From a virus: a DNA stretch of 37,707 nucleotides. The notes beneath the pieces are model-generated. The model was not told where the DNA came from. It did not search any database and was given only the letters and a program-made list of their open reading frames with translations. Below, one piece after another: positions 1,097 to 37,707 of this stretch (position 1 is the first letter of the stretch; each line of letters begins with the position of its first letter). The stretch lies in IMG/VR virus record IMGVR_UViG_3300021197_001397, positions 1-37,707 of that record; one strand, written 5' to 3'. Position numbers and translations under genes: made by a program.

Positions 1097-2239
1097 ATGG
1101 CAGGATTAACAACCACTCAGACATTCAGCGATGGTGATACGGTTACTGCCGCCAAACTGAATAACATAATTGCAAACGCTTCAATTAGTGATGGAGGCAT
1201 TGCACCTGACAAGTTAGCTCCTAATTCAGTTAAAGAAGCTAACATGGCTAATAACTCGGTAGATACTAATGCGTTAGTTAGTGATTCTGTTACTAATAGC
1301 AAACTAGACACGATGGAAAAGCGGCGGGTGAAAGTTAATGCTACTGATGCCACTGCTAATCCGACTGATTTATTTGTAGATGCAAACCAGTTACTCGTAG
1401 GAACAAGCAGCACAATTAATGCGGTTAGTTTTTCTGATGATTTGGCTTTAGATAACGCCGGAGCTACTGCAAGTAAGATTATTGCTGCACCTAGTTTAAT
1501 TAATGGCAAATCTACGGTAGCCGCATCTAACCTGGATGAGTTGTTACTATACGATCAGGACGCTACGACTGTACTGAAGAAAACAACAGCAGGATCAATT
1601 GTCGCTAGTCTTAAAGCCACTACAAGCCAAGCTGGATCAATACTAGTAGCAAGCGGATCTGCGGTTAGTGATCCGCTTAATGCAACGGTAGTTGAAGAAG
1701 CTTTTACACCTACTCAAGCAATCAACTGTCCAATATTTGCAAAAGCCTGGGCAAGTATAAGTAGTAATCTTAATTACGAAGCAGGAATCGGAAAATTTTC
1801 TTTAGATAGCTCTTATAATATTGGAACAGAACAAAGCTCTGGGACACTAACAAGTGCCACAAAGTACAAGATTATAGAGTACAAAAGTGGTGATAATTTT
1901 ACAACTGTAGGAGCTTCTTCAAACGCTACAGGAGTTCAGTTTACAGCCACAGGAACGTCTCCAACTTGGTCAAACGGAAGTAGACTTGTTCCTGTTCCAA
2001 TAGTAGCTAGTAGAGGAGTAGTAGACTTTACTTTTTCTGATGCTGTACCGTCAGACAACTTTATTGTTTTAGTTTCTAATGCTAAGTACGGAAACGGATC
2101 GGTAATTACAGAAGCAGGCAGAGCAACAGTTTCAAATGAAAGTACTGGAGGATTTCGTGTAACATTTCACGAAATTGACGATGGAGATGACACTTTAAAT
2201 ACTCCAATGGTTGCCACAATATTAGTCTTTGGAACCTAA
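1097..2239 (+). CDS. Tail-fibre-like structural protein
   Basis: 380 residues preceded by a strong Shine-Dalgarno (AGGAGG at 1086-1091). The N-terminus (MAGLTTTQTFSDGDTVTAAK followed by LNN) is a start often seen on phage fibre or appendage proteins. Residues ~20-75 repeat Asn/Ser-rich elements (SVKEANMANNSV, SVTNSKL). At about 256-295 lies a module of the GDNFTTVGASSNATGVQFTA kind, which recurs in marine phage appendage proteins. The C-terminal ~80 residues look like a compact beta domain. No catalytic motif is visible. It precedes tubular protein A with its stop overlapping the next ATG (TAATG). A baseplate or fibre adaptor role is likely. Confidence 0.65.
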   Translation: MAGLTTTQTFSDGDTVTAAKLNNIIANASISDGGIAPDKLAPNSVKEANMANNSVDTNALVSDSVTNSKLDTMEKRRVKVNATDATANPTDLFVDANQLLVGTSSTINAVSFSDDLALDNAGATASKIIAAPSLINGKSTVAASNLDELLLYDQDATTVLKKTTAGSIVASLKATTSQAGSILVASGSAVSDPLNATVVEEAFTPTQAINCPIFAKAWASISSNLNYEAGIGKFSLDSSYNIGTEQSSGTLTSATKYKIIEYKSGDNFTTVGASSNATGVQFTATGTSPTWSNGSRLVPVPIVASRGVVDFTFSDAVPSDNFIVLVSNAKYGNGSVITEAGRATVSNESTGGFRVTFHEIDDGDDTLNTPMVATILVFGT

Positions 2240-3411
2240 TGACTTTAACCGATATTTCTACATACGTTTGTAACCTGGTTAACAAAACGGATGACACATC
2301 CAAATCTAGGTGCAAAGAATTTATACGGCAACATCACGAGAACATCATTAACTCTGGGTTATGGAGAGAGACAATTGATGTTGAACAAATGACACTGCCG
2401 TACGATGGTAGGATAACTCAGATTATTTTAGACAATGGAGGATCAGGATACACCTCAGCACCCACTGTTGGTTTTTCTGGTGGTGCTGGGAGCAGTGCTA
2501 CTGCTGCTTGTGAGATTGGTGGGGGAGCAGTTGCAAAAGTTTACATCCAAAACTCAGGATCAGGATACACCTCCGCACCAACAATAACATTTACTGGGGG
2601 AGCAGGAGATGGAGCAACTGCAACTGCAATTGTAAGTGAGTTAGCTGATGAGATGGTTTGTCCTCAGAAATTTGAGACTATTTTAGGTATTAGTTATAAC
2701 GAACAAAATCTGTTACCAACACAACTCATAACTGAGTTAATGACTGACCCAGATTCATTTAAGAAAAATGCAAACACTGCTCAGTTTTCTGTTATTGATA
2801 GCTCAGGTATTAATTTTGATCCTGCTTATGGTGCTATTGAGTTTCTTTCCTCGGACAGTTCTGACAACGGTAAGAAAATCACAATTGTTGGTGAACTATA
2901 CGGGCAGGAACTAACCATGCAGAAAGAGACAGTAACACTAGCCTCTAGTGTCACCACATCAAATGTATGGTCAGCAGTTCATTCAATAAGCAAAGAAACT
3001 ACCACAGGACATGTCCAGGTTAGAAGTGCTACTGACGCAAGTAAGTATTTCTTTTGGCCTGAATGGGAGAATGTAAGTAAATTCCAAAGAGTTAAGTTTT
3101 TTGACAAACCTAAATATGACGCAAGTGATCCTAAGAACTTGTATGTTATTGGTAAAAGAAAAACTCAGCCTATGATTGGTGATTATGATTCACCAATGAT
3201 TAGCGGCATTGATAATGTGCTGATTCATTTTGCAACTGGTGACATGTTGAAGAGGTCGAGACAATTTGGTAAAGCTCAATTAGAACACCAACAGGCTAAT
3301 GCATTAATGCAAGTGGCTCGTGATCAAGAGAACAACCAGTCTGCAAAACAAACTCGATTGATACCGGATGTCTATGGCATGGGTTACAGTAGAAATGATT
3401 TTGGATTTTAA
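2239..3411 (+). CDS. Tail tubular protein A-like (T7 gp11 position) with inserted repeats
   Basis: 390 residues. The helical N-terminus (MTLTDISTYVCNLVNKTDD, then SRCKEFIRQHHENIINSGLW) resembles the head-tail adaptor part of T7 gp11-type tubular A proteins, which sit under the portal. T7 gp11 is only about half this length. The extra mass includes two tandem beta repeats at about 61-91 and 101-132, each carrying GSGYTSAPT. The same repeat type is in the following tail gene. The rest is mixed alpha/beta with YPE/WPEW-like aromatic stretches. Identification relies on the N-terminus, on position directly before tubular B, and on gene order; family membership was not verified by search. Confidence 0.6.
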   Translation: MTLTDISTYVCNLVNKTDDTSKSRCKEFIRQHHENIINSGLWRETIDVEQMTLPYDGRITQIILDNGGSGYTSAPTVGFSGGAGSSATAACEIGGGAVAKVYIQNSGSGYTSAPTITFTGGAGDGATATAIVSELADEMVCPQKFETILGISYNEQNLLPTQLITELMTDPDSFKKNANTAQFSVIDSSGINFDPAYGAIEFLSSDSSDNGKKITIVGELYGQELTMQKETVTLASSVTTSNVWSAVHSISKETTTGHVQVRSATDASKYFFWPEWENVSKFQRVKFFDKPKYDASDPKNLYVIGKRKTQPMIGDYDSPMISGIDNVLIHFATGDMLKRSRQFGKAQLEHQQANALMQVARDQENNQSAKQTRLIPDVYGMGYSRNDFGF

Positions 3412-3414
3412 GTT

Positions 3415-5550
3415 ATGCCTGTTTATTATAACGATGGACTTGATGACCCGGTTCAATATGATCGTCAGGCTAGTTTCGTAGGTGGGCAAATATCTAACTT
3501 CCGCGAGAATCTTCTAAACGAATCTCAAGCAGAATCACTTAAAGATCTAGACGCTCCAAAGAATGGTGTTCTAAAATCTAGACGAGGATTTCACAGGTTT
3601 GCTAATTTACTAGGCAGTTCATCAGCCTCAACCAACACACAAGCGTTAGCCTATTATGACACTGATGCTAAAGAGTCGTTAATTGCGTTTGTTAATTCTA
3701 ACGCTTACGCAATAAATTCTAGTGGCACTGTTAGCGTGTCAGGACTAGGAACTGGTTTTACAAACAGCACAACTAACCGGGTTTACACTTGCCAAATTGC
3801 TGACAAGTTGTTTTTTGCTAGTCATTCTAATAATAACAGAATAGGTCAAATTTCTTGGGATAACAGTGCATCTGCATTTGTTGTAAAAGAAATAGCTGAT
3901 GGACCAATTAACTCTAAATATTTAGTTAACAATAATTTTAGGATATTTGCTTATCAACCCAGCGATGATCAAATACATGTTTCTGAATTTCTTCCTAATT
4001 ATACCCAGGCAATTGGATCTTTAACGATCACTAATGGGGGCACTAGTTATCCTAATGATGGGACACTTAGTGCTATTGGAGGAGGAGGATCAGGTTTTGC
4101 AGGAACCTATACAGCAGATAGTGGAGTGATAAAAACAGTCACGATAACTAATCGTGGTAGTGGTTACACATCTTTGCCAACAATAGTTCCCGCTCCCGCT
4201 GGAGACGGCAATGCTGCCATAACTCCAGCCTATGAAACTACATTTGGGGGCACAGCAAATTTGCCATTTAAAGTGGGACTAGGTGACCCAGTAACCGGGT
4301 TAGCAAGTTGGGTAGCTTTTAACATAGTAGTTTTTTGTAAAAACAGTTGTTATGTAGTTGATACTGGAGGTGCACCTGCTGCAAGTGGAACTGCTCCGAC
4401 TACAGCAGACTTCACAATTAGAACAATCTCAGCGACCACAGGATGTGTTGCTAATGGTTCTATAGCTCAGGTTGGAGAAGATCTATTTTTTCTTTCTCGC
4501 ACAGGAGTCCGATCAATTAGACGGACCATGGAAGAAAACATGGTGGCATCTGACGTAGGTGTTATCAGTTACCCAATACAAGATGTTATTGATAAGATTA
4601 ATTGGGCTGCGGTTGAAAATGCTACATCAGTATTTTGGAATAACAGATATTTACTATCTGTCCCAACTGGGGCAAGCACAGTCAACGACACTACAATAGT
4701 CTTCAATACTAACACCCAGTCCTGGATGGGTATTTGGAATGGAGATGTGACTGTTACAAGCGGAGTTCCATCAAGTTACATAAATCCATACCAGTATGCG
4801 GTGACTCAGTTTAGTGGAGGCAAACCGTATTTAATTAGCCTGGATAAAATTGGTAATCCATTGCAATACCGGGATTTTGTTGAAGATAGAAATTTAGTAG
4901 ATACGGATTTTCAAGATAAAATAAGAACTTCTACGGGAGTTGATGATGTTCGGATTAAAAACGGAGGCACTGGTTATTCTGCTGGAACATTAAGCGCATC
5001 AGGTGGAGGCGGATCTAGCTTTGCTGGAACCTATACCGTGAGCGGGGGAGTAATTAATTCTGTTACAATTACAAACAGTGGAACGGGTTACACTTCCGCT
5101 CCTACGATTGTTACTAGTCATGCAGGAGCAGGTAATGCTGATTTTAAAGTTTTTCTCTCAATGGACACCGGGTGGGAAGCGTTAACTAGAGCCTTCACAT
5201 TCAACGAGCAGACTACTAGTAAAGATGCTGAGTTCGCTGAGTTTGAGTTTGATCGAAGTAATGCAGTTATTGACATTGGGGTTATCCTCGATGGAGCAGA
5301 ACAGACAGACAATTTAGCTGATGAACTAGACACCGGAACAGGAGAATTAAGATTAACTTTCCCACTGCCATCAACGCTTGGAAGCGGATTGTTAACTAGG
5401 TTCAGATATTCAATGACTCAATACCCAGAGTTCCGTGAGTTGCAGTTCAAATTTCAGCAATCAGATAACGCTGGAACAGACAGTAAATATTTAGCATTAA
5501 GATCAATTTATGCTGGAGGATTTCTTAACAGTGTGGGGGTAGAATCGTGA
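3415..5550 (+). CDS. Tail tubular protein B-like / stabilisation protein
   Basis: 711 residues. The N-terminus has the GGQISNFRENLL...NGVLKSRRGF pattern shared in style with T7 gp12 and P22 gp10-type tail nozzle proteins (a GG-S signature, then Asn-Gly and Arg-Arg-Gly). Much of the body reads as beta-propeller-like strands. Two insertions at about 202-270 and 511-578 each hold a paired repeat (GGTSY or GGTGYSAGTLS, a Gly-rich turn, GTYT, then SGYTS or TGYTSAPTI). They match the repeats in the tubular A-like protein. The stop overlaps the GTG start of the next gene. It probably forms the distal tail tube through which the ejection proteins and DNA pass. Confidence 0.7.
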   Translation: MPVYYNDGLDDPVQYDRQASFVGGQISNFRENLLNESQAESLKDLDAPKNGVLKSRRGFHRFANLLGSSSASTNTQALAYYDTDAKESLIAFVNSNAYAINSSGTVSVSGLGTGFTNSTTNRVYTCQIADKLFFASHSNNNRIGQISWDNSASAFVVKEIADGPINSKYLVNNNFRIFAYQPSDDQIHVSEFLPNYTQAIGSLTITNGGTSYPNDGTLSAIGGGGSGFAGTYTADSGVIKTVTITNRGSGYTSLPTIVPAPAGDGNAAITPAYETTFGGTANLPFKVGLGDPVTGLASWVAFNIVVFCKNSCYVVDTGGAPAASGTAPTTADFTIRTISATTGCVANGSIAQVGEDLFFLSRTGVRSIRRTMEENMVASDVGVISYPIQDVIDKINWAAVENATSVFWNNRYLLSVPTGASTVNDTTIVFNTNTQSWMGIWNGDVTVTSGVPSSYINPYQYAVTQFSGGKPYLISLDKIGNPLQYRDFVEDRNLVDTDFQDKIRTSTGVDDVRIKNGGTGYSAGTLSASGGGGSSFAGTYTVSGGVINSVTITNSGTGYTSAPTIVTSHAGAGNADFKVFLSMDTGWEALTRAFTFNEQTTSKDAEFAEFEFDRSNAVIDIGVILDGAEQTDNLADELDTGTGELRLTFPLPSTLGSGLLTRFRYSMTQYPEFRELQFKFQQSDNAGTDSKYLALRSIYAGGFLNSVGVES

Positions 5551-6820: not shown

Positions 6821-8478
6821 TGAGCGCAGGATCAGCATTTGCAAGTGGGCTAAGAGCGGGGCAGGCTATATGGAATAGTGCTGCTAATAATGCCATGCAG
6901 AAGAAACGTCTAGACATGGTCAAGACGCAATTCAAATATGAGCAACAACAACGGAAAGAAAAGATTGATAATGAATTAGCTGCACAAACGGCAAAAGACA
7001 AATTTGTTGATTATCTGCCAGAAGCACTTGCTTCAGGTGAAATTGATTTTTCTACTCTTGAAGGACGGGAATTCTATGCAAATTTAAAATCATCAGTTGA
7101 GCCAACTATTCTTAGAGATCCGGCTACTTGGAAACAATACGGAAATATAACAAAAGCATTTGAGGAAAAAGAAGGATACCCAGTATTATTAGCACAGGAT
7201 CGTAACCGTTTGCTTACAATTGAAAATTACAAAACAGTCAGTGGAGAAATTGATCCAATTTATAAGAGAGACAAAGATGGAAGTTTCATTCTAAACCCAG
7301 ATGGGAAAACTCAGTTTGATATGCCAGCAATGAATAATTTTATTGATAATTACAAACTTGAGAAAGAAGTAGATGCCATAAAGAAAAAACAAAAAGCTTT
7401 ATATGGAGGAGACGCATTTGAAAGCATGATTATATCTGGTGCACCAACTGCTGGAATGCCTAAAGAAATGCAAACACCAGTCATTGTTGCTCGACAAAAA
7501 CGGTGGGCAAATGCGGTTAAAAGTAACGACACTGACACAATTATTGGAGCGTCAAATGTTCATACAAAAGCACCTGATGGGAGTGAGCGTCTAGCATTAA
7601 GTAAATATAAATTCACACTTGCTCGATTGGAAGAACTTGACGAACAATTAAAAGTAGTGGGAGACACCGGGCCAATTGTTGGAATTTTTCGATCTGCTAA
7701 TCCATGGGATGTGAAAGCTCAAAGGCTTAAAGCTCAGATAACAACAATTATTCCCGGTTTCGCTCGTGGTGTATTTGGAGAGGTTGGCGTTTTAACTGAT
7801 GACGATGTAAAGTTGTATTCTAGAACACTTGGGACGTTAAATTCTCCTGAAGAAATCAATAAACTTTTGACCTCAGCAGCAATTAAAATGGTTTCTAATT
7901 CTTACGAAGACAAACTTAGAGGTATGGCTGAAAGTAAAATTGACGTTTCAGGACTTCTTCCAGGTTTGAAATCTTTGAGGTCTACTGCAAACAGACTCCT
8001 CGGTGAAGAAGAAGCAGAAGAAGCATCCCAAGACAGACCAGTAGTTGAGGTTGAAGAATTTAGAGGTAAAGATCAGCTTAGCGATGAGGAAAAAGCTGAA
8101 ATAATTTCTACTGGAGCAAACAAAGTTCAGATTCTAGATAAGAGCACAGGCAAGACGCATAACATTAATCTTGAAAGACGGACTGACTCTACAACTCCAC
8201 CTGCACCTAGACCAGACCCAGCTAACAGTTTATTACCTAAACCTGCGCCTAGTTCAGATGAGATAGATAAAAAGCTGGACAGAAAATTAAAAATAAAAAA
8301 TAGGATTAAATTTCTTCAAGAGCAATTAGATAAGTTGCCATCTCCACCAAACCCAAATAGAGGCTCATCTTACGTTCCAATTACTACTAACACTAAATCT
8401 GATCGAGACACGGAGAAGAGAAGAAAACAACTTATTGAATCTATTAAGAAGAACAAAGAAAACCTGTCTAAACTCTAA
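6820..8478 (+). CDS. Internal virion (ejection) protein B-like
   Basis: 552 residues. The N-terminal ~65 residues form an amphipathic helix region (SAFASGLRAGQAIWNSAANN). A central element (ARGVFGEVGVLTDDDVKLYS at about 320-340) matches a Gly-Glu-x-Gly-x-Leu-Thr-Asp-x-Asp motif common in phage virion proteins. The last 150 residues are charged and Pro-rich with a Lys-rich coiled-coil end. Position and size correspond to the middle ejection protein of T7-like phages. The stop overlaps the start of the giant gene downstream (TAATG). No enzymatic motif was seen. Confidence 0.6.
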   Translation: MSAGSAFASGLRAGQAIWNSAANNAMQKKRLDMVKTQFKYEQQQRKEKIDNELAAQTAKDKFVDYLPEALASGEIDFSTLEGREFYANLKSSVEPTILRDPATWKQYGNITKAFEEKEGYPVLLAQDRNRLLTIENYKTVSGEIDPIYKRDKDGSFILNPDGKTQFDMPAMNNFIDNYKLEKEVDAIKKKQKALYGGDAFESMIISGAPTAGMPKEMQTPVIVARQKRWANAVKSNDTDTIIGASNVHTKAPDGSERLALSKYKFTLARLEELDEQLKVVGDTGPIVGIFRSANPWDVKAQRLKAQITTIIPGFARGVFGEVGVLTDDDVKLYSRTLGTLNSPEEINKLLTSAAIKMVSNSYEDKLRGMAESKIDVSGLLPGLKSLRSTANRLLGEEEAEEASQDRPVVEVEEFRGKDQLSDEEKAEIISTGANKVQILDKSTGKTHNINLERRTDSTTPPAPRPDPANSLLPKPAPSSDEIDKKLDRKLKIKNRIKFLQEQLDKLPSPPNPNRGSSYVPITTNTKSDRDTEKRRKQLIESIKKNKENLSKL

Positions 8479-11400
8479 TGGCTGACCCATTGAAACCATC
8501 TGCTGATAGATTGTCTAGGCAGTTATCTTCTCCCACAATAAGTGAACCTATTGAGGAGTACACGTTCACACTTGATGAAGAACAACCGATACAAGATTTT
8601 GAGGAAATTGAGTTTGAAGAGACTATTCCATGGATAGATTCCAGTGGAAAACAAACTGATGTTCCAGTCTACGATAATAATAAAAAAAAGATATACCGTC
8701 CTACTTACAATAAAGACGGCATTGAGACCCACGATGACCGTGGGATAATGACGTTTGAGGAGTGGAAAAGAAAAAAAGATGACGGAGTTGATTGGTATCC
8801 CATAGCAAAACAAGCAGTAATTGGATTAGCGGGTGGGTTTGGAAAGATACCCGGTAAGATCAAAGAAGAAGGCTTGCTTGAAGCATCAGCCAACATACCA
8901 GAATCATTCTTAGCAGCAACTGAAGGCTTGAGACTAATTGGTGGAGGTATTGGTAGATTTGCAGCAAAACCATTTCGTAATAAAGAAGAAGAAGATCAGG
9001 CAAGTTACGCGGCATATAAAGAATTTGGAAATGAGATTTTCAGACAACTTGAGCTGAGAAAATCACGACTAGGCGATGTTGCCAGGTATTTTGGTGCTGA
9101 TGAGTTGGCTGAGGTTTATGATGATGGAATTGATCCAGAGGTAGCAGATTCACTCAGTTTGATATTTGACCCCACTTATTTAGTTGGAGGAGGTTTGGTA
9201 AAAGTTGGTGCAGCAGTAGCAAGAAAAGCACCTAAAATTACTAATCAATACGCTAAGAAGATGATTAAAACTGCTGGTGCCGCAGCAGGTTCTAAAGCAG
9301 CAAAACAACTTGGAGAATTTTTAGCAAAGCCAATTACTACTAGTGTTAGTGGTATTGGTTCTGGAGTAGAAAAAATTGGTCGTGGTGTTCAAAAAGCAGG
9401 TACTAAAGCAGCAATCTTTGGGGCTAAAAATCCAAAATTAGCACAGACTCTTCAATATGGAATTGGTGCAGGTGCAGGTGCGTATTCTGCCCCAGAAGGA
9501 CAAAAGATTGCAGGTGCAGTTGGTGGAGCACTTGGTGGTAGGTTTGCGTTAGAGTCAGGAAAAGTTATTGGGCTTGGTGAAGTTATTGAAAAAGGCGCAC
9601 AACGCATTGGAGGTGCTGCACAAGCTGCAAAAATCAACTCAATCAGAACTAGTGGTCTAGGTACAGTTGCCAAGATTAGGCCAATGCGTGAAGACGTAGC
9701 AAAACAGTTTGTAACAGTCGATAATAGATTAGCAAACAAACTACTCTCTGGTGCAGGACAAATGGCTGACACGGTCACTATTGGCGCAGGAATAGGTGCA
9801 GGTTTGGGTGCTATGATGCCGTATGACCCAACTAACCCAGGATGGATAGCTGGGATGGGTTTAGGCACAATTGCAGCTCCTGCTGGTTTACTCTCAGCTA
9901 AAGCATTTAATCAGTTAGCAAGAGTTGAAATCAGTCGAGGTGGTGTACCTGATGCGGGGATGAGGTTACGCCTCAAAGAGACGCCAATGCATCAAATGGC
10001 ATCTGAGGCAGTTGTTAAAAGATTTCTCTCTGGTTTACCAGAGCAACAAAGAGCCAGATTTGTAGATCCAAACAGAAACTTATCAGTTGATGATTTAGCT
10101 TCTCAGGCTGAAGCAGTTGATTGGCTCATGGGTGCTAGAAGAGATACTGGTAAAGATACTAATTTTTTTATTGGAGACACTCAGGAGATCCAAGCAAAGA
10201 CTGGTGGTATTGCTAGAGACGGTGTGGCTGGATTCTATGATTCAGACAGTAACACGGTTTACATTAACACTGATGCAGAGACTCCTAGTTTTACATTATT
10301 TCATGAAGTGTTTCACCCAAGCGAAAAATGGAGTTCGTTAAAGAAAAAATTAGATGAAGAATCTGGGGAGTCATTTAAATCTGATCCATTACAAGATATT
10401 CAAACTGACCTAGCACAAACTATCTTTGGTACTTATGCGCCAGATGGTGGAATGATGAAGCCAGGTCTTTACTCACAGTCAGACATGTTAAGTTTTGCTG
10501 ATCAATATAATGGTCAGTTATACCCAGATCTAACCAGTGAGATAATTTCAAAAAAAGCAGAGATTAAAAAAGTTAAACCTGAGAGCACTGCTGAGTTGGC
10601 AAAAAAACAGGATGAACTGAACAAGCTTTTAGAAGATCAAGAACTAAACAAGAAAGAGCTGGACGCATTCAATGCGTTACCTGATTCATCAAAACGTGAC
10701 TACATGGCACGAGAGTTGATGTCTGATTATTTTGCTATGTTTGGTGAATCAGCCAGACACGGTATTATTCGCAAAGCTAGAAACATCACTCTCAAGAAAG
10801 ATTATTTTAAAGATAAATTTCTTGGGATGAACATCGACAAGTTGAAGTTTAACGTGCTTGGCAGGTTAAAGAAAACGCTTGAGGCTCGTGGTGTAGAATT
10901 TGATTTGGCAGGAAACCCACGGGGAGAAATGACTGCCACTAGTGCGTTGTTTAAATATCCTGATCAAAGCAAAAGCATCTCTGATGTTAAGAATAAGATA
11001 AAAGATGAACGTGCCAAACCTGAAGCTGATGAACCTACTTTAAGACTACTTGAAAAAGAACTTTCTGGTCTTGAAGCAAAGCAGAAACTAGCAGGTAAAG
11101 AAGTGTTGATGTCACCTGAGATTGAACATCTTCTTGCACAATACATCACTGAGAAAGATAAGCTAATAGATCGAGTTTCTGAGACAAGCGACACGGGTGG
11201 ATCAGAAGTAACGGTTAACGCAAAAGATTTACTAAAGAAAAACCCAGACGGCACACCAAAGATCCCAGAGACAGAAGTAAAACGCTGGGCTAGGAGTGGT
11301 TGGCTGAAGACTGATAAAGACGGGAATGTTTTAAACTCAACTGGTGGCAAATGGCAACCTGGACAGAAACCTGCATTTACAACACCAGCAGAAAGAACAC

Positions 11401-14400
11401 GCATGGAGAAGAAGCGTGTTGAGATGTTAGTTGCTGCGCTTAAAGATGTTACTGATGACGTTAACGATGATGCACCTGACACTCCTATTGTAAAAGCTAA
11501 GACTAACGAGAAGACAGGTAAAACAAATTTTAGAGGCTCATATTTTGATGACCGACAGATGGATGCAATTATGGGTGCTGATGATGATGTTGTTCATCCT
11601 GACTTAAAAGCCACTATCAAGATGATGAATGATGCCATCAAAGAAGGCACTGGGGCACCATTCTTGGCAGACTATTGGAAAGCTATCTCTGGTAGAGGTT
11701 ATGACTCAAAAGCACGGATGAAAGTGCAACTGTTCACACCATTTGGCATGGAGATCAGTGGGGCAGGAAATTTTAATGCTAAAGTTTTTAACATTGGCTA
11801 TTTTGAAAACAAGATAAACAGGTGGTTAGGTCAGACGGGAAAAAGAAAGTTTTGGTCAGACTGGGCTGATTCAGACGGTAGAGTGAATGTAGATGAGTTC
11901 CGCACAGATATGATGAAACTGTTAGATACTCATTACTTGAACGATACAACAGTTAAATTTCCTGATGGAATGAAGAAAGAAAAATTATATTCATTCTTAG
12001 GAGTAAAACCAGATGATCCTAGTGTAAGAGATTGGAACAGATCAAAACAAGATTCTAAACTCTTTATTAGTCTCAGGTTTGACAGGATGAGAGAAGTTGC
12101 TCGTGGCATGGGCCAAAGTTATCCTGTCAATTACCACAAAGCTAAGACTAGATATATGCCGGGGAAAACAGCAGAACCTCGCCCGGTGCAAGATGATTTA
12201 GGTTTCTTCAGTCGAGTAGAGCAGGTAGCCATGGGAGACAAGATCCCAAATCGAGGATCGGGCGATCAGATGCTGGCTACGATCAAGAAACAACCAGGCG
12301 TAAAAGAAGAAGAATTAAAATGGCTAGGCTTGGAGGATTATTTACGAGGCAAGAAGCAAGTCACTAAACAAGAACTAACTGACTTCATCCGAGAGAACGA
12401 TATCCAGTTGGAAGAGACTATGTTTAGTGGTGATCGGTATACTCCAATTGATCCTAACAAAGAAACTTCCCCAACCCAATACGAAGAATACCAACTACCC
12501 GGCTCAGAAGATGGTAGCTACAAAGAGATGCTGTTAAGAATGCCTAATGAGAAAGAAAGTGCTAGAGATTTATTAGGTGAACCTAAAAAAATATCAGTTG
12601 AAGAAAGCGTTGAATACGAAGGAGCAAATGATTATTTTGATGAAGATAAAACAATTGATAATTATTTCATTCCTGAAGGCTATTCTATTGAAAACAAAAA
12701 AGATTTTGACGATGGAACAGGCAATGTTCCAGAATACATAACTAGTGAATGGAATATTTTGGATGACAGAACTGATGTTGTAGCAGAAGGCAACACCCCA
12801 GAAGAAGCAGTTGCAAACTTGCACAGAAAATACTCTAGAAATTACTTAGGTGATTTAAAACCTGTTTCACTTGGATCAGCATTTAACCCAGCTAGAATTG
12901 ACCACGTTCTTAAATATGATGGTGGTTTTGAAATAGGTGTTAGGGCTGATGGTAAATATGATTTAGAACTTAGAGACCTAGATTCCATCAATTCATCTGA
13001 TGTCATCTCTGATGATTTAGCTAAATTTGAGAGAAGACTTGCTGATTTCGCTATAGATGAAGGCATGATAGATGGGGTTAAATCCAAAAACTTCAGATCA
13101 TCTCATTTTAATGAAAAAAACATTTTAGCTCATGTGCGATTCAACACCCGCATTGGGCCAAATGGTGAAAAGATTTTATTCATTGAGGAGCTACAATCTG
13201 ATTGGCATTCAGAAGGACGGAAGCGTGGGTATGGAGAAGAAGTCCCAGACGCACCATTCAAATCATCATGGCATGAGTTAGCAACCAAAAGAATGCTGCG
13301 CTATGCCGCTGAGAACGGATATGACAAGTTGGCGTTTATCGATGGGAAACAAACATCTGATCGGTACAATTTAGGAAATAAAATAGACAGACTAGTTGTT
13401 CACAAAAATGATGAAAGCAACACCATTGCACTTGAAGCAGATGGCAATCTGGTTAAATCAGGAGTTAAAGAATCAGAGCTTGAAAGCTATGTAGGAAAAG
13501 AAGTCGCTAAAGATATTATTGAAGGACTTTCAGAGGAGCGTCCTGACATGGGAGGCACTCGAACTGTTGAGCTTTACGGGGATGATCTTCAAATTAACAA
13601 AGCTTGGGCATTCAACTTGTACGACAAAATGATCCCGCAATTCCTCAAGAAATACGGCAAGAAATTTGGTTCGAAAGTCGAGGATGTGAAGGTTAGTACA
13701 ACTGACGCTGAGTTTAGAGATCAGTTTGCTAATTTAAAGAATTTCAAAGCAATAGACATCACACCTCAAATGCGAAGTGAAGATGGAGTGATGGGAGGTC
13801 AGGTTAGGTTTATGCCGGGGATTGAAAAAGTTACTTCAAATGAACCTGGAATAGTTACTAACAATGTTAATATTAAATCTGGAGCATTTAATGGTGTTAG
13901 GTTCATGCCTGGTACATCAGTGCCCAAGATTACACTAGATAAGATAGCTAAATCTAACCCATTTATAATAACTGCTGATTCAATGGCAGACATGACCTAC
14001 ACTGTTCCAGACTCAGGTGTTGAAATTAAACTGCACGGAGGTCCAATGTTTTCATATCGTCCCGGTAATGCAGTTTGGGCATCCAATAAAAGTGCAGCAG
14101 GTAGAATTGGTAACCATGTTGATCGAACTGGTCAGCGTTTCGCATTGATCATGTTGCAGAATGGTGTGAATCATGCAAAAAACAAAAGTATGGGGCGTGT
14201 ATTTGTTGAGGAATTAAAAGCTAGAAAAGAATCAAAAAAAATTAAATCTGGCGATCTGAAAAAGATGCTGACATACGCTAGTGAAAGAGCAGGTTTAGAA
14301 AAACCAATTAAAAACTTAACGGAACTTGAAGATTTTTATTCATTTTGGGATTGGGATGTTCGCGGGAAATTCTTTGACACATTTGGGCTTGTAAGAACAC

Positions 14401-14780
14401 CAATTGGAGATCCCAAAAAAGCAGGTTTTTTCGATTATAAAAAAATAATTAGAGACACAACTCAACCTCAATTTTTAGATAAACCAACAGGTACAATAGT
14501 AGGTGCTATTGAATTTAAAAGCGGCAAACGATTCAATGCTGATGAGTTGGGTGCAGAACCTCACAGCAGTTATGACACTATGTTAGAAGGACGAGGAGTT
14601 GGATTATTTAAAAACCCACCTCATATTAGTGATGTGCTTGATGTTCCTGATAATCAAAGATCAGTGTTCACTCTGCAAAAACGTCTTTCATCTCCTAATA
14701 GACTGAAACAAGCGGCAGATGCTGAGAATAAACTTAATACTATCCGTAAAAAATTTAAAAATAAAAAGATTCTAAAATGA
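8478..14780 (+). CDS. Giant polyvalent ejection protein with HExxH metalloprotease motif
   Basis: 2100 residues; third gene of the ejection block, in the position of T7 gp16. Residues ~1-100 are acidic. Residues ~110-500 hold several Gly/Ala-rich hydrophobic glycine-zipper stretches (for example VTIGAGIGAGLGAMM) that could span the host membrane. A zinc-protease motif HEVFH is at 609-613, preceded by GFYDSDSNTVYINTDAE. Coiled coils follow. About 1240-1775 is the module known from large polyvalent phage proteins: LPGSEDGSYKEMLLRMP, SSHFNEKNILAHVRF, ELQSDWH at 1571-1577 and RYAAENGYD at 1608-1616. A last module (LHGGPMFSYRPGNAVWAS) is at about 1855-2090. R[FY]MPG tags occur at 1225, 1777 and 1808. 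No T7-type transglycosylase domain was recognised. Confidence 0.75.
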   Translation: MADPLKPSADRLSRQLSSPTISEPIEEYTFTLDEEQPIQDFEEIEFEETIPWIDSSGKQTDVPVYDNNKKKIYRPTYNKDGIETHDDRGIMTFEEWKRKKDDGVDWYPIAKQAVIGLAGGFGKIPGKIKEEGLLEASANIPESFLAATEGLRLIGGGIGRFAAKPFRNKEEEDQASYAAYKEFGNEIFRQLELRKSRLGDVARYFGADELAEVYDDGIDPEVADSLSLIFDPTYLVGGGLVKVGAAVARKAPKITNQYAKKMIKTAGAAAGSKAAKQLGEFLAKPITTSVSGIGSGVEKIGRGVQKAGTKAAIFGAKNPKLAQTLQYGIGAGAGAYSAPEGQKIAGAVGGALGGRFALESGKVIGLGEVIEKGAQRIGGAAQAAKINSIRTSGLGTVAKIRPMREDVAKQFVTVDNRLANKLLSGAGQMADTVTIGAGIGAGLGAMMPYDPTNPGWIAGMGLGTIAAPAGLLSAKAFNQLARVEISRGGVPDAGMRLRLKETPMHQMASEAVVKRFLSGLPEQQRARFVDPNRNLSVDDLASQAEAVDWLMGARRDTGKDTNFFIGDTQEIQAKTGGIARDGVAGFYDSDSNTVYINTDAETPSFTLFHEVFHPSEKWSSLKKKLDEESGESFKSDPLQDIQTDLAQTIFGTYAPDGGMMKPGLYSQSDMLSFADQYNGQLYPDLTSEIISKKAEIKKVKPESTAELAKKQDELNKLLEDQELNKKELDAFNALPDSSKRDYMARELMSDYFAMFGESARHGIIRKARNITLKKDYFKDKFLGMNIDKLKFNVLGRLKKTLEARGVEFDLAGNPRGEMTATSALFKYPDQSKSISDVKNKIKDERAKPEADEPTLRLLEKELSGLEAKQKLAGKEVLMSPEIEHLLAQYITEKDKLIDRVSETSDTGGSEVTVNAKDLLKKNPDGTPKIPETEVKRWARSGWLKTDKDGNVLNSTGGKWQPGQKPAFTTPAERTRMEKKRVEMLVAALKDVTDDVNDDAPDTPIVKAKTNEKTGKTNFRGSYFDDRQMDAIMGADDDVVHPDLKATIKMMNDAIKEGTGAPFLADYWKAISGRGYDSKARMKVQLFTPFGMEISGAGNFNAKVFNIGYFENKINRWLGQTGKRKFWSDWADSDGRVNVDEFRTDMMKLLDTHYLNDTTVKFPDGMKKEKLYSFLGVKPDDPSVRDWNRSKQDSKLFISLRFDRMREVARGMGQSYPVNYHKAKTRYMPGKTAEPRPVQDDLGFFSRVEQVAMGDKIPNRGSGDQMLATIKKQPGVKEEELKWLGLEDYLRGKKQVTKQELTDFIRENDIQLEETMFSGDRYTPIDPNKETSPTQYEEYQLPGSEDGSYKEMLLRMPNEKESARDLLGEPKKISVEESVEYEGANDYFDEDKTIDNYFIPEGYSIENKKDFDDGTGNVPEYITSEWNILDDRTDVVAEGNTPEEAVANLHRKYSRNYLGDLKPVSLGSAFNPARIDHVLKYDGGFEIGVRADGKYDLELRDLDSINSSDVISDDLAKFERRLADFAIDEGMIDGVKSKNFRSSHFNEKNILAHVRFNTRIGPNGEKILFIEELQSDWHSEGRKRGYGEEVPDAPFKSSWHELATKRMLRYAAENGYDKLAFIDGKQTSDRYNLGNKIDRLVVHKNDESNTIALEADGNLVKSGVKESELESYVGKEVAKDIIEGLSEERPDMGGTRTVELYGDDLQINKAWAFNLYDKMIPQFLKKYGKKFGSKVEDVKVSTTDAEFRDQFANLKNFKAIDITPQMRSEDGVMGGQVRFMPGIEKVTSNEPGIVTNNVNIKSGAFNGVRFMPGTSVPKITLDKIAKSNPFIITADSMADMTYTVPDSGVEIKLHGGPMFSYRPGNAVWASNKSAAGRIGNHVDRTGQRFALIMLQNGVNHAKNKSMGRVFVEELKARKESKKIKSGDLKKMLTYASERAGLEKPIKNLTELEDFYSFWDWDVRGKFFDTFGLVRTPIGDPKKAGFFDYKKIIRDTTQPQFLDKPTGTIVGAIEFKSGKRFNADELGAEPHSSYDTMLEGRGVGLFKNPPHISDVLDVPDNQRSVFTLQKRLSSPNRLKQAADAENKLNTIRKKFKNKKILK

Positions 14781-16409: not shown

Positions 16410-17504
16410 ATGATTCAAATACCAATCCACGGCAATCGTGCCATTCAAAAGAAGCTTGAGAAGACTAAGCGGGGTTGGTGGTCTTATCGCTTGAGGCATA
16501 GAGCGAGGAAGATTGACAAGTTCATCAAGTCTAAAGCGGATAACAAGTATGATGCTGCTGAGGACATTATTGAGGAGATTAAAAGATTCAACAATCCTCA
16601 AATTGACTTGCCTAAGCTTGTTCTACCTCAGCAGTTGCACACTTGGTCACAAATATTCCATCTGCTAGACATTCATTCAGACAATGGTGAGAAGCAGGTT
16701 AGTAGTGCTAAAACTGCCATGAGAAGATTCCTACGAGGCATAGGACATACTGAGTCCCACCACCCACATGAGTGCACCAAAGATCTGTGCGAGAGGTGGA
16801 TGGAGGCTGAGATTAATCGAGGCAAAACTCCTGAGCAGAAACTCACAATAAAGAAGAAACTCAATGTGTCATTGCGCCAAGCCAAGTACGGTTTGTTCAA
16901 GCGCAGCATGATGAAATATTACAACATTGCTGACTCATTTAATTTTACTGATCTGAAAGTTCTTCGTTTCAAAGCCACCAAATACAAACGACCACAAGAT
17001 GATAGACATTTTAGAGCAGACAAGTATTTCCGTGAGGTTGTTAAGCGTGAAGATCCAATCATGTTTGGGTTTTATGAATTGATGCGAATTAGTGCTCAGA
17101 GAAACATTGAGGTGGCTCATGCTAAACGAAGCAACTTATTGCCTCACTGCATTGTGAATGATCGTATTGTGCCCAAGAAAAATGAGGTAGAACGAGAGAT
17201 ACCATATCCTGATGGGTTCAGTGAGGCTGATCGTCAGTTTTTATTGAATTTAAATCCTGACGGTGAGTTTGTTCTTCCTGGCACAGATTATGACCGTGAA
17301 TATGGATTTACTAAAAAGATTAATTCACATTTGAAACAATTTGGATTTACTGCATATCAATTGCGTAAAGAGTGGGCATGTCAGTTATTAGAGGCTGATG
17401 TGCCATTGCATGTTGTCGCAGAAATGATGGGCAACACTGTGCAAATCTTAGTTGACCACTATGTGGCATCTGAAAAACCGAAATACAAACTACAACGAGG
17501 ATAA
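16410..17504 (+). CDS. int: Tyrosine recombinase integrase
   Basis: 364 residues. The N-terminal ~60 are basic (QKKLEKTKRGWWSYRLRHRA), as in arm-binding domains, followed by a helical core-binding domain (~70-175). Catalytic-domain landmarks are RISAQRNIEVAHAKRSNL (Arg231), AYQLRKEWACQLLEADVPLH (Arg319) and EMMGNTVQILVDHYV (nucleophile Tyr351). The usual first His of the H-x-x-R box is Tyr316, and the usual second His/Trp is Asn342. Such variants occur in divergent phage integrases. It would integrate phage DNA at the tRNA-Phe-like core next to it. AGAGG near 16390 can serve as ribosome site. The whole catalytic order is intact, so it is probably active. Confidence 0.85.
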   Translation: MIQIPIHGNRAIQKKLEKTKRGWWSYRLRHRARKIDKFIKSKADNKYDAAEDIIEEIKRFNNPQIDLPKLVLPQQLHTWSQIFHLLDIHSDNGEKQVSSAKTAMRRFLRGIGHTESHHPHECTKDLCERWMEAEINRGKTPEQKLTIKKKLNVSLRQAKYGLFKRSMMKYYNIADSFNFTDLKVLRFKATKYKRPQDDRHFRADKYFREVVKREDPIMFGFYELMRISAQRNIEVAHAKRSNLLPHCIVNDRIVPKKNEVEREIPYPDGFSEADRQFLLNLNPDGEFVLPGTDYDREYGFTKKINSHLKQFGFTAYQLRKEWACQLLEADVPLHVVAEMMGNTVQILVDHYVASEKPKYKLQRG

Positions 17505-18534: not shown

Positions 18535-18845
18535 TTGAATATCTATCTGCACAAGAGGTAGCTGAAAAGCTGAACATGTCTCTGAGAAACATAAGACGGC
18601 ACATCAAGACTGGTAAGTTGAGGAGTCACAAGATTGGTAAACTTAGGAGGATCTCGATTCAAGACTTCACGTTGTTTGCTGAAGGACGAAAAAGAAGACA
18701 AGAGAACCAAAAGATAATCGATGAGATGGCAGCAGCAGACTGGGCTAAGGCAGTCAAATGGATGAATGAGAATATGGACAAGATCCCAACTCAGCCATGG
18801 TACAGACAATCAAGTCCACCAGTTTTATCAATTGGGAGTAGATGA
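18531..18845 (+). CDS. Excisionase-like helix-turn-helix protein
   Basis: 104 residues. Residues ~3-50 (YLSAQEVAEKLNMSLRNIRR, then TGKLRSHKIGKLRRISIQDF) are a MerR/excisionase-type winged helix: helix-turn-helix, then a short Gly/Lys hairpin and an Arg-rich wing. The C-terminal half is a charged helix (AAADWAKAVKWMNENM) followed by a Pro/Ser tail. Start overlaps the RlpA-like stop (ATGA); the end overlaps the methyltransferase start (ATGA at 18842). With an integrase nearby, a role in excision is likely, though this fold also serves in general regulation. Confidence 0.65.
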   Translation: MIEYLSAQEVAEKLNMSLRNIRRHIKTGKLRSHKIGKLRRISIQDFTLFAEGRKRRQENQKIIDEMAAADWAKAVKWMNENMDKIPTQPWYRQSSPPVLSIGSR

Positions 18846-20098
18846 ATGTGGATACTACCCAAACAAATCATCTCAGCTTCTGCGCTGGGTACGGAGGCAT
18901 TGATCTCGGACTGCGAAGAGTTCTCCCAACTTGCCGAACAATCGCTTATGTGGAGATCGAAGCCTTCGCAGTTGCGAACTTGGCGGCAAAGATGGAAGCG
19001 GGAGAGTTGGATCAAGCACCTATCTGGACGAATCTTAAAACATTCAATGCAGAACCATTTCGTGGCTTGGTGGACATCCTGTCAGGTGGCTATCCGTGCC
19101 AACCATTCTCAGCAGCAGGAAAACGACTCGGCAAAGAAGACCCAAGACACCTCTGGCCGTTTCTGCGCCGATCAGTTCGAGTTATTCGCCCCAGAAGAGT
19201 GTTCTTCGAGAATGTCGAAGGACACATCTCGCTTGGACTCTCCACAGTCATCAGCGATTTGGAAGAAGATGGTTACAGAACAACGTGGGGAATATTCAGC
19301 GCGGCTGAGTGCGGCGCGAGCCACCAGAGAAAGCGAGTCTTCATCTACGGAGAATTGGCCGACAGCAGCAGCACGGGATTGGAAGGACAGTCCAGGTCCA
19401 TGGATGTACAACGCAACCAACCCGGATGGAACGGACAGAAACCGAACGGATCAACTAGCGAGAGCAGTTTACCACCGGCAATGGCCGACCCCAACAGCAA
19501 GCGAAGTGAAGGATCAAGGCACAGACTGGGAGAAACTTGCGAAGTACGACAATGGCGGCAGGATTCTGAGGAGAATAGCCAACATGGAGGTCAACAATTG
19601 GCCAACCCCAACGACAGCGGAGGCACAGAAGATCAGCAACAAAGCCAATTACGGTCAGAAATGTCTGAGCAATCATCCTGCAATTCGTGGCCTTCCAGAC
19701 CGGGAGAAGCTCAAAAAAGATGGGAAGAACCAAGAACAATGGCCGACCCCAAGAGCCGGAAATCCGGGAAGTCGGAAACCGGGAACGGGGGGGAAGATAT
19801 TAGAGGAGGAAGCGAAGAAGAATTGGGGAACACCAAGAGCATCAAAAGCGATGTCTGCAACAATAACGGAGAACCTAGTGAATCGCAATGTGGGGAATCT
19901 GGAGGAGCAGCACCCGTCATCAGTGGGACAGAAGTTGAACCCAGATTGGGTGGAGCAACTGATGGGTGTGCCAGTGGGGTGGACACAACTCCCCATCCAT
20001 TGGTTAACAGAGTTGATAGGCTCAGATTGCTTGGAAATGGAGTTGTCCCAGCAGTTGCAGCAAAAGCCTGGAGTGAACTAAGTAACAGATTTAAATGA
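18842..20098 (+). CDS. DNA cytosine-5 methyltransferase
   Basis: 418 residues with all main C5-methyltransferase motifs. These are SAM-binding FCAGYGGIDLGL (motif I), GGYPCQPFSAAGKR with nucleophile Cys86 (IV), FFENVEG at 121-127 (VI), HQRKRVF (VIII) and RLRLLGNGVVPAVAAKAW at the C-terminus (X). Residues ~170-370 form the target-recognition region. It is low in hydrophobic residues and repeats a short unit five times (LADSSS, MADPNS, LANPND, MADPKS, LGNTKS). It would methylate cytosines in a specific site, probably protecting phage DNA. The same DNA is open in a second frame (18846-20081). The stop overlaps the start of a nuclease gene. Confidence 0.85.
   Translation: MNVDTTQTNHLSFCAGYGGIDLGLRRVLPTCRTIAYVEIEAFAVANLAAKMEAGELDQAPIWTNLKTFNAEPFRGLVDILSGGYPCQPFSAAGKRLGKEDPRHLWPFLRRSVRVIRPRRVFFENVEGHISLGLSTVISDLEEDGYRTTWGIFSAAECGASHQRKRVFIYGELADSSSTGLEGQSRSMDVQRNQPGWNGQKPNGSTSESSLPPAMADPNSKRSEGSRHRLGETCEVRQWRQDSEENSQHGGQQLANPNDSGGTEDQQQSQLRSEMSEQSSCNSWPSRPGEAQKRWEEPRTMADPKSRKSGKSETGNGGEDIRGGSEEELGNTKSIKSDVCNNNGEPSESQCGESGGAAPVISGTEVEPRLGGATDGCASGVDTTPHPLVNRVDRLRLLGNGVVPAVAAKAWSELSNRFK
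18846..20081 (+). CDS. Overlapping second-frame ORF of the methyltransferase gene (WPTP-repeat protein)
   Basis: 411 codons open inside the methyltransferase gene, starting four bases after its ATG and ending 17 bases before its stop. The product is Trp-, Ser- and Arg-rich. In order it carries LRTWRQRWKRESWIKHLSGR, QRGEYSARLSAARATRES, five units starting at 170, 212, 251, 298 and 326 (NWPTA, QWPTPTA, NWPTPTT, QWPTPRA, NWGTPRA), and KLNPDWVEQLMGVPVGWT near 363. From memory these same elements recur, in this order, in proteins annotated in phages and prophages. That may mean real double coding, or repeated annotation of a shadow frame. Conservation in one frame partly forces the other. Translation is unproven. 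Confidence 0.4.
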   Translation: MWILPKQIISASALGTEALISDCEEFSQLAEQSLMWRSKPSQLRTWRQRWKRESWIKHLSGRILKHSMQNHFVAWWTSCQVAIRANHSQQQENDSAKKTQDTSGRFCADQFELFAPEECSSRMSKDTSRLDSPQSSAIWKKMVTEQRGEYSARLSAARATRESESSSTENWPTAAARDWKDSPGPWMYNATNPDGTDRNRTDQLARAVYHRQWPTPTASEVKDQGTDWEKLAKYDNGGRILRRIANMEVNNWPTPTTAEAQKISNKANYGQKCLSNHPAIRGLPDREKLKKDGKNQEQWPTPRAGNPGSRKPGTGGKILEEEAKKNWGTPRASKAMSATITENLVNRNVGNLEEQHPSSVGQKLNPDWVEQLMGVPVGWTQLPIHWLTELIGSDCLEMELSQQLQQKPGVN

Positions 20099-37148: not shown

Positions 37149-37167
37149 TTTTAAAAATTAGAAAACA

Positions 37168-37527
37168 ATGATCGAAATAAATACAATACCTACGGCAGAG
37201 CTAAATGTTTCTAAAGTAGCGGTATCACTAAACTCAGCTCAAGAATTTGGAATGCAATTCAGCGTAGTTGGTTGGGGTAAATTCAAGAATGCAGAAGGAG
37301 AAGATGTCTGGGGTACTACACCTCTGGTTTCCACGTTACTTTCTGTGACGGGAGAAGCTTGGGACAATTGGCTAGACGTAGATGACGCTACTTATATAGG
37401 AGATCTCTCGCTGGATCTGCTTGGACTACAACGTGATCCTGATGCAGTTATCGAAGTCGAAGAGACTCCAGTAGTAGCACCAGCGGAAGAATCTGATGCA
37501 GACGATTCTGAAGAAGCGGCAGAATAA
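37168..37527 (+). CDS. Small acidic protein of the fibre cassette, copy 2
   Basis: 119 residues, paralogue of the gene at 107-496. The first ~60 residues are nearly identical. The middle differs (EAWDNWLDVDDATYIGDLSL against a PTWDAWGSDKSDAIY segment). The acidic tail is about ten residues shorter. It starts 19 bases after the fibre stop in the same A-rich leader (AGAAAACAATG). Conserved ends with a changed middle suggest the variable part matches its own fibre; this is inference. Confidence 0.8.
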   Translation: MIEINTIPTAELNVSKVAVSLNSAQEFGMQFSVVGWGKFKNAEGEDVWGTTPLVSTLLSVTGEAWDNWLDVDDATYIGDLSLDLLGLQRDPDAVIEVEETPVVAPAEESDADDSEEAAE

Positions 37528-37585
37528 GCTGTTAGTCTTTTTAATTTGTCTTTTGGCTATTTTAGTTCGGGAAAAAGCTAAATGA
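37496..37585 (+). CDS. Hidden 29-residue membrane peptide, copy 2
   Basis: Same frame, length and product as the ORF at 465-554, with Lys in place of one Arg (KKRQNK). The TGA at 37583-37585 overlaps the ATG of the next gene at 37582 (ATGA). The upstream deletion in the acidic gene removed possible earlier in-frame ATG codons, which supports the ATG in ATGCAGACG as the start. Confidence 0.6.
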   Translation: MQTILKKRQNKLLVFLICLLAILVREKAK

Positions 37586-37707
37586 ACTTTGACGATATTA
37601 AAGTTGCAATCGCCAGTGCTACTGGGATTTTTAACTGGATGGTGGAGATAGATTTAATTCTAAAAGTTGGAATAAGTTTGGCGTCTTTAATTTATATAAT
37701 CTTGAAG
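37582..37707 (+). CDS. 50-residue membrane protein, copy 2 (cut by window end)
   Basis: 42 codons to the window edge, beginning MNFDDIKVAIASATGIF. It matches the protein at 551-703 with four residue changes (including the start codon), most base changes being synonymous. Here ATG replaces the GTG of copy 1. The 3' end lies outside the window. Confidence 0.7.
   Translation, partial: MNFDDIKVAIASATGIFNWMVEIDLILKVGISLASLIYIILK

What the first reader, a model, noticed from the sequence alone, without database searches (positions are those of the whole stretch)
8478..14780. 2100-residue ejection protein assembled from polyvalent modules, with a zinc protease motif
In the place of T7 gp16 lies a protein with glycine-zipper membrane stretches, HEVFH at 609-613, and the ELQSDWH / RYAAENGYD module known from large polyvalent proteins of phages and prophages. 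It has no recognised transglycosylase. Polyvalent proteins are thought to be delivered into the host with the DNA. A protease plus further effector-like modules behind a possible membrane channel suggests an injected toolkit acting on host defence or on the protein itself.
Basis: partly seen in the sequence, partly recalled or inferred. Interest (0 to 1): 0.7.

Follow-up and report, generated by a model that had tools for sequence, protein, structure and literature searches.

The report
Tagged modular phage ejection polyprotein
A marine phage encodes one giant protein that joins a likely zinc protease to exchangeable effector modules, one of them with the fold of an acetyltransferase, and the same short peptide tag sits at the module borders as if marking where the protein is cut apart.

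Summary
The ORF, HEVFH and the ELQSDWH module are real. The 2,100-aa protein (8478-14780) has a Gly/Ala-rich N-terminus, a zincin-like domain (H609, E610, H613; conserved downstream Glu746), a conserved middle domain, then exchangeable cassettes. Profile comparison with zincins of other polyvalent proteins supports the protease (91.8%, E 7.5e-7), but AlphaFold2 of that region failed (pLDDT 53). The ELQSDWH module, modelled with high confidence, matches GNAT acetyltransferases (Z up to 9.7). Cassette borders carry R[FY]MP three times (0.04 expected). In relatives the C-terminal module is swapped three residues after that motif, and other cassettes are inserted or removed between copies. Unrelated polyvalent proteins carry their own repeated border tag (FMPA, FSPK, FSRT, FSED, YSLR, FAV). 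Tag flavour is protein-specific, also in a held-out set, and tag codons differ, so selection acts on protein. Best reading: a polyprotein cut at these tags, probably by its own zincin, to release injected effectors. Self-processing was already proposed (Iyer 2017); the passages read name no sites. Cleavage and injection are untested here, and one related clade keeps the tags with a degenerate EELGH motif.

The parts
8478..14780 (+). whole polyvalent ejection-type protein, 2,100 aa
8805..9917 (+). Gly/Ala-rich, weakly hydrophobic N-terminal region (aa 110-480)
10095..10757 (+). zincin-like metallopeptidase region (aa 540-760)
   Evidence: profile-profile match to zincin stretches of other polyvalent proteins, 91.8%, E 7.5e-7; reversed-profile control 0.07%; AlphaFold2 model low confidence
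10302..10316 (+). HEVFH (aa 609-613)
   Evidence: H, E, F and H invariant in 8 aligned orthologues, V/L at the third position
10713..10715 (+). candidate third zinc ligand Glu746 (MARELMSDYFA)
   Evidence: same column is Glu in L018, L056, L195 and L164
11595..12149 (+). conserved middle domain (aa 1040-1224), shared by the core of divergent relatives
   Evidence: alignment; BLAST matches W-L018 and W-L164 there
12150..12164 (+). junction tag 1, RYMPG (aa 1225-1229)
12189..13805 (+). ELQSDWH module with GNAT fold (aa 1238-1776)
   Evidence: invariant columns in 58 rows
13806..13820 (+). junction tag 2, RFMPG (aa 1777-1781); module swap point
   Evidence: pLDDT falls from 96 to about 30 here
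13899..13913 (+). junction tag 3, RFMPG (aa 1808-1812)
13914..14777 (+). C-terminal cassette (aa 1813-2100), function unknown; replaced by a DUF7178 cassette in L001, L003 and L004
   Evidence: Pfam hit tested on L001 only

Best explanation
The gene encodes a phage polyvalent protein built as a polyprotein: a core (Gly/Ala-rich N-terminus, zincin, conserved middle domain) followed by exchangeable effector cassettes, here a GNAT-fold acyltransferase-like module and a C-terminal module. The R[FY]MP[AG] tags at the borders are recognition or cleavage sites. The zincin in the same chain most likely cuts at them, in the head or after ejection, so that the cassettes act as separate proteins in the host. 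Shown here: architecture, conserved zincin residues, GNAT fold by predicted structure, tags at swap points, tag flavour specific to each protein. Inferred: packaging, ejection, cleavage at the tags, the zincin as the enzyme, acyltransferase activity.
For: (1) Three R[FY]MP in 2,100 aa against a mean of 0.037 in 3,000 dipeptide-preserving shuffles, none of which reached 3; none in the 21 other window proteins read. (2) In orthologues the C-terminal cassette is swapped three residues after RFMP (L001, L003, L004 against W, L002, L005); L021 holds an extra cassette between two tags; L007 lacks the ELQSDWH module but keeps GGQVKFMPG; L199 carries a further cassette between KFMPG and RFMPA. (3) In L018 the ELQSDWH part is a separate gene, split near tag 1; in L194 and L195 the core protein ends at that border. 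(4) The tag recurs in other polyvalent proteins with a protein-specific flavour: ELQ set 50 own extra sites against 27.4 by permutation, p 0.0004 (38 proteins); held-out ART set 33 against 20.3, p 0.0044 (24 proteins). (5) In the held-out loci 8 of 36 ART starts have their own tag within 60 aa upstream, always 12-17 aa before WFG, against 1.73, p 0.0004 (ORFs of 500 aa or more, not de-duplicated). (6) BLAST-match ends cluster at tags: 54 against about 21 expected over seven proteins. (7) Tag codons differ between copies, including TCN/AGY serine switches. (8) The modelled module ends at the tag and disorder begins there. (9) Zincin profile match. (10) GNAT folds fill the structural hit list.
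Against: L056 and L193 keep FMPA tags, but the HExxH position reads EELGH, as it also does in L194/L195. L195 ends in NYSPPSK with nothing downstream to release. GNAT and ART modules end by themselves in an aromatic residue, so part of the tag is intrinsic. The held-out scan of repeated tetrapeptides was not led by [FY] tags; 'proteins with at least one extra site' was not significant there (p 0.26), nor was the small ELQ subset (7 proteins, p 0.24), nor the set-A ART starts (2 of 8, p 0.29). Motifs in the boundary test were chosen after seeing them. Zincin-tag association could not be shown (Fisher p 1.0 and 0.75). P1 DdrB, reported as processed, has no clear tag.
Confidence: 0.5

Rival explanations
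1. The tags are not cut. They are the conserved ends of domains plus the start of a flexible linker, kept as a structural cap or spacer, and the whole chain acts as one protein.
For: GNAT-fold ELQSDWH modules end in an aromatic residue in many phages, also in short proteins; L195 keeps NYSP at its C-terminus without any cassette; the tag sits on the last strand and the linker start.
Against: The two or three residues after the aromatic one are shared by unrelated modules in the same protein and differ between proteins, also in held-out proteins. A structural cap need not match across unrelated folds.
Confidence: 0.3
2. The tags are recombination footprints: short shared DNA at which cassettes are exchanged between phages.
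For: Cassette swaps break exactly at the tags.
Against: Codons at the copies differ, including serine TCN/AGY switches, so the DNA is not the conserved part.
Confidence: 0.07
3. The tags are cut, but by another protease (a host protease or another phage protease), and the zincin has a host target.
For: L056 and its close relative keep tags with a degenerate EELGH motif. Iyer 2017 (section 8 read) also allows MPTases to act on host proteins.
Against: No second protease was recognised among the ten window proteins scanned; tag flavour is specific to each protein, which fits an enzyme in the same chain better.
Confidence: 0.13

Closest known systems
Polyvalent proteins of phages and conjugative elements (Iyer et al. 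2017, PMC5512222)
   Same: Large multidomain phage protein with a zincin and disparate modules; autoprocessing by the zincin was proposed there (abstract, sections 8, 11 and 29 and passages read).
   Different: No cleavage site or border motif was found in the sections and passages read. The ELQSDWH module matches no recurrent Pfam family in 58 members and is not identified here with either GNAT family they describe.
GNAT N-acetyltransferases, including KacT, AtaT and TacT toxins, RimI, NatD, GCN5
   Same: Predicted fold; VIA Z up to 9.7 with rmsd 2.7-3.5 over 130 residues.
   Different: Large insertions; the acetyl-CoA loop is only partly conserved; no sequence-level match; the hits are tied, so no substrate can be read from them.
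T7 gp16 and pelagiphage HTVC028P gp34/gp33
   Same: Position in the virion gene block. HTVC028P gp34 carries the same ELQSDWH module (32% identity, aa 1536-1739).
   Different: No transglycosylase; in HTVC028P the module lies in a separate 954-aa protein next to gp33, annotated 'putative internal virion protein'.
Phage P1 DdrB and the Dar proteins
   Same: Virion head proteins with an HExxH; DdrB processing is cited by Iyer 2017.
   Different: No repeated border tag in P1 DdrB.

Membership tests
Polyvalent protein (Iyer 2017) | several domains of disparate activity in one phage-encoded chain | tested here: met
   zincin, GNAT fold, exchangeable C-terminal cassettes; virus record
Polyvalent protein (Iyer 2017) | delivered into the host with the DNA | not testable with these tools
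   only gene order supports it
Zincin of polyvalent proteins (MPTase) | HExxH | tested here: met
   HEVFH aa 609-613
Zincin of polyvalent proteins (MPTase) | conserved Glu on a downstream helix as third ligand | tested here: met
   Glu746 column is Glu in all seven aligned cores; the ligand role is inferred
Zincin of polyvalent proteins (MPTase) | zincin fold | tested here: inconclusive
   model mean pLDDT 52.8, H-E-H-E-E-H order up to HEVFH; structural matches mostly to its helices; profile match 91.8%; no Pfam hit
GNAT acyltransferase | GNAT fold | tested here: met
   nearly all 50 rows are acetyltransferases by title, best Z 9.7; Foldseek E no better than 0.015
GNAT acyltransferase | acyl-CoA pyrophosphate loop Q/R-x-x-G-x-G/A (motif recalled) | tested here: inconclusive
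   R1581 in 51 and G1584 in 54 of 58 rows, last Gly in 14 of 58
GNAT acyltransferase | Tyr general acid in helix 4 (role recalled) | tested here: inconclusive
   Y1715 invariant in 58 of 58 rows; its position against solved GNATs was not measured
GNAT acyltransferase | acetyl transfer activity | not testable with these tools
   no assay
T7 gp16 ejection protein | lytic transglycosylase domain | tested here: not met
   no Pfam or PHROG hit

The most novel reading that the evidence does not exclude
Phage polyvalent proteins are true polyproteins with a private cleavage code: each phage uses one short tag ([FY] plus two to three fixed residues) at its cassette borders, read by the zincin in the same chain, and any cassette that acquires the tag can be added. 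[quoted passage not shown]
Probability: 0.35. Interest if true: 0.82.

Novelty: new variant of a known kind. Interest (0 to 1): 0.62.

Why it matters
Self-processing of polyvalent proteins was proposed in 2017, but the passages read name no cleavage site. The tags give concrete, testable sites, a simple rule for finding cassette borders in giant phage proteins that annotation leaves blank, and a way to cut out single effectors for assay. Reading the widespread ELQSDWH module as a GNAT fold gives a first functional lead for a module found in at least 563 viral-contig stretches.

Tried and rejected
Pfam, PHROG, PADLOC and PDB sequence searches of the whole protein found no domain. AlphaFold2 of the zincin region failed, and its structural matches concern mostly helices. 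Zincin scans in viral contigs with this domain reached only orthologues; the C-terminal cassette likewise. P1 DdrB gave no tag. A first clustering for the flavour test was too coarse (17 clusters of 55 proteins; 27 own sites against 9.2 by shuffling and 8.6 across proteins) and was replaced. The unsupervised tetrapeptide scan put [FY] tags near the top in the ELQ set but not in the held-out set. A tripeptide scan was noisy and showed no zincin association; 86 of 97 large polyvalent proteins hold HExx(x)H anyway. The DNA-footprint idea was rejected on codons. In one search, 28 of 69 BLAST ends in the family lie within 12 residues of a tag; many of the rest lie in variable insertions inside the ELQSDWH module. 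Literature: nine searches of the held library listed no paper whose title or abstract start concerns a border tag in polyvalent proteins; only passages or sections of four papers were opened. So 'not in print' is not claimed beyond these.

Full report
What is there. The ORF 8478-14780 encodes 2,100 aa without interruption. The record is a virus contig of 37,707 bases with portal-, capsid-, terminase- and tail-like genes and an integrase. The gene follows two tail-tube-like genes and further genes placed like internal virion proteins, as in pelagiphage HTVC028P, so a role as ejection protein rests on gene order. No library names any part of it.

The zincin. HEVFH by itself could be chance (61 of 3,000 shuffles hold an HExxH). 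It is kept, as HE[VL]FH, in every orthologue seen that covers it. In seven aligned cores, including the divergent L018 (HEMMH) and L164 (HEITH; its HExxH is not placed in the HEVFH column by the alignment), a downstream Glu (746) is invariant. A profile of this region matches a profile of zincin stretches from other polyvalent proteins, with L018 and L164 left out: 91.8%, E 7.5e-7, HExxH on HExxH. A reversed profile of the full group, L018 and L164 included, gave 0.07%; a second, smaller zincin group gave 0.3%. Both sides were chosen for HExxH, which favours the match. AlphaFold2 did not settle it (mean pLDDT 52.8).

The ELQSDWH module. With 58 sequences AlphaFold2 models it at pLDDT mostly above 90. 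VIA-align gives Z up to 9.7, and nearly all 50 rows shown are N-acetyltransferases by title; ICL2/Rv1916 C-terminal domains are GNAT-like from recall, and one row is titled only 'bacterial toxin'. Foldseek E-values are weak (best 0.015), but its top rows are the same families. E1570, E1571, Q1573, S1574, D1575, W1576, R1554, R1558, W1598, G1623, R1629 and Y1715 are invariant in 58 of 58 rows. The rows are tied within 1 Z or so, so no substrate follows. No GNAT Pfam model appears among the 25 families shown (of 34) for the 58 members.

The tags. R[FY]MP occurs at 1225, 1777 and 1808, against 0.037 expected. RYTP at 1320 resembles it but lies at no border. W, L002 and L005 share one C-terminal cassette; L001, L003 and L004 have another (DUF7178 by Pfam in L001, E 1.6e-30), and the break is three residues after RFMP. 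L021 has an extra cassette (ASCH-like by eye, recalled, no Pfam hit) between two tags. L007 lacks the ELQSDWH module and goes on from GGQVKFMPG with other sequence. L199 has yet another cassette between KFMPG and RFMPA. In L018 the module is a separate gene. In L194 and L195 the core ends at the first border, and none of the frames listed downstream in L195 continues it.

Beyond the family. In 80 non-redundant large proteins, the repeated tetrapeptides with the highest enrichment include [FY]MPA (L053, L056), FSRT (L040), [FY]SPK (L047), FSED (L094) and RFSP (L106). L164, from the ART scan, has the same layout as the window protein, with KLFMPA-type tags between modules. Tag flavour taken from the ELQ tail recurs elsewhere in the same protein more than in others: 38 proteins, 50 against 27.4, p 0.0004. 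In the ART scan, made afterwards with redundancy to the first set removed, 24 of 68 ART proteins had a readable tail: 33 against 20.3, p 0.0044, though the count of proteins with at least one site was not significant (p 0.26). Two smaller cross tests gave p 0.036 and 0.24 (all). Eight of 36 ART starts in the held-out loci have their own tag 12-17 aa upstream, against 1.73 (p 0.0004; ORFs not de-duplicated); in the first set 2 of 8, p 0.29. Across 86 ART starts, [FY][SMQA] falls 9-18 aa upstream in 24, against 10-13 in the other five windows. BLAST-match ends cluster at tags in seven proteins (p 0.008 to 0.08 each, motifs chosen after inspection). Codons at the tags vary between copies.

Reading. 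Borders marked by the same peptide in unrelated modules, differing between phages, are what a protease recognition site would look like, and a zincin sits in the same chain. That is inference: no cleavage has been seen here. Against it stand the EELGH clade with intact tags, the L195 protein that ends at the border, and the aromatic residue that these modules carry at their ends anyway.

What is known. Iyer et al. 2017 (PMC5512222; abstract, three sections and passages read) proposed that zincins process polyvalent proteins; 'linker' occurs 0 times and 'cleavage site' only in a reference title. They describe two RimI-like GNAT families; whether the ELQSDWH module belongs to one of them was not tested. 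The jumbo phage review PMC7824862 (passages) mentions the phage GNAT Rac acting on host RNA polymerase, a precedent for a GNAT as a takeover effector.

Verdict. The protein is a new variant of a known kind; the border tags and the GNAT fold are the new parts.

Noticed in passing
88-676 and 37149-37707: Diverged direct repeats (85-91% identical) near the two ends of the record, holding a paralogous pair of small genes (107-496 and 37168-37527).
   Followed up: partly
2239-3411 and 3415-5550: Both tail-tube-like proteins contain Gly-rich GSGYTSAPT-type repeats that match many PHROG virion and baseplate families; DNA repeat D4 at 2439-2621.
   Followed up: no
16410-17504: Integrase (phrog_1, E 1e-16), so the phage is probably temperate; a DNA methyltransferase gene lies at 18842-20098.
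   Followed up: no
L056, L193, L194, L195: A clade of related core proteins has TEELGH where HExxH is expected, conserved at 45% identity, which suggests a retained function rather than decay.
   Followed up: partly
large ORFs of the loci: 86 of 97 large ELQ- or ART-bearing proteins (1,500 aa or more) hold HExx(x)H, well above the 36% with MPTases that Iyer 2017 gives for all polyvalent proteins; the regular expression is loose.
   Followed up: partly
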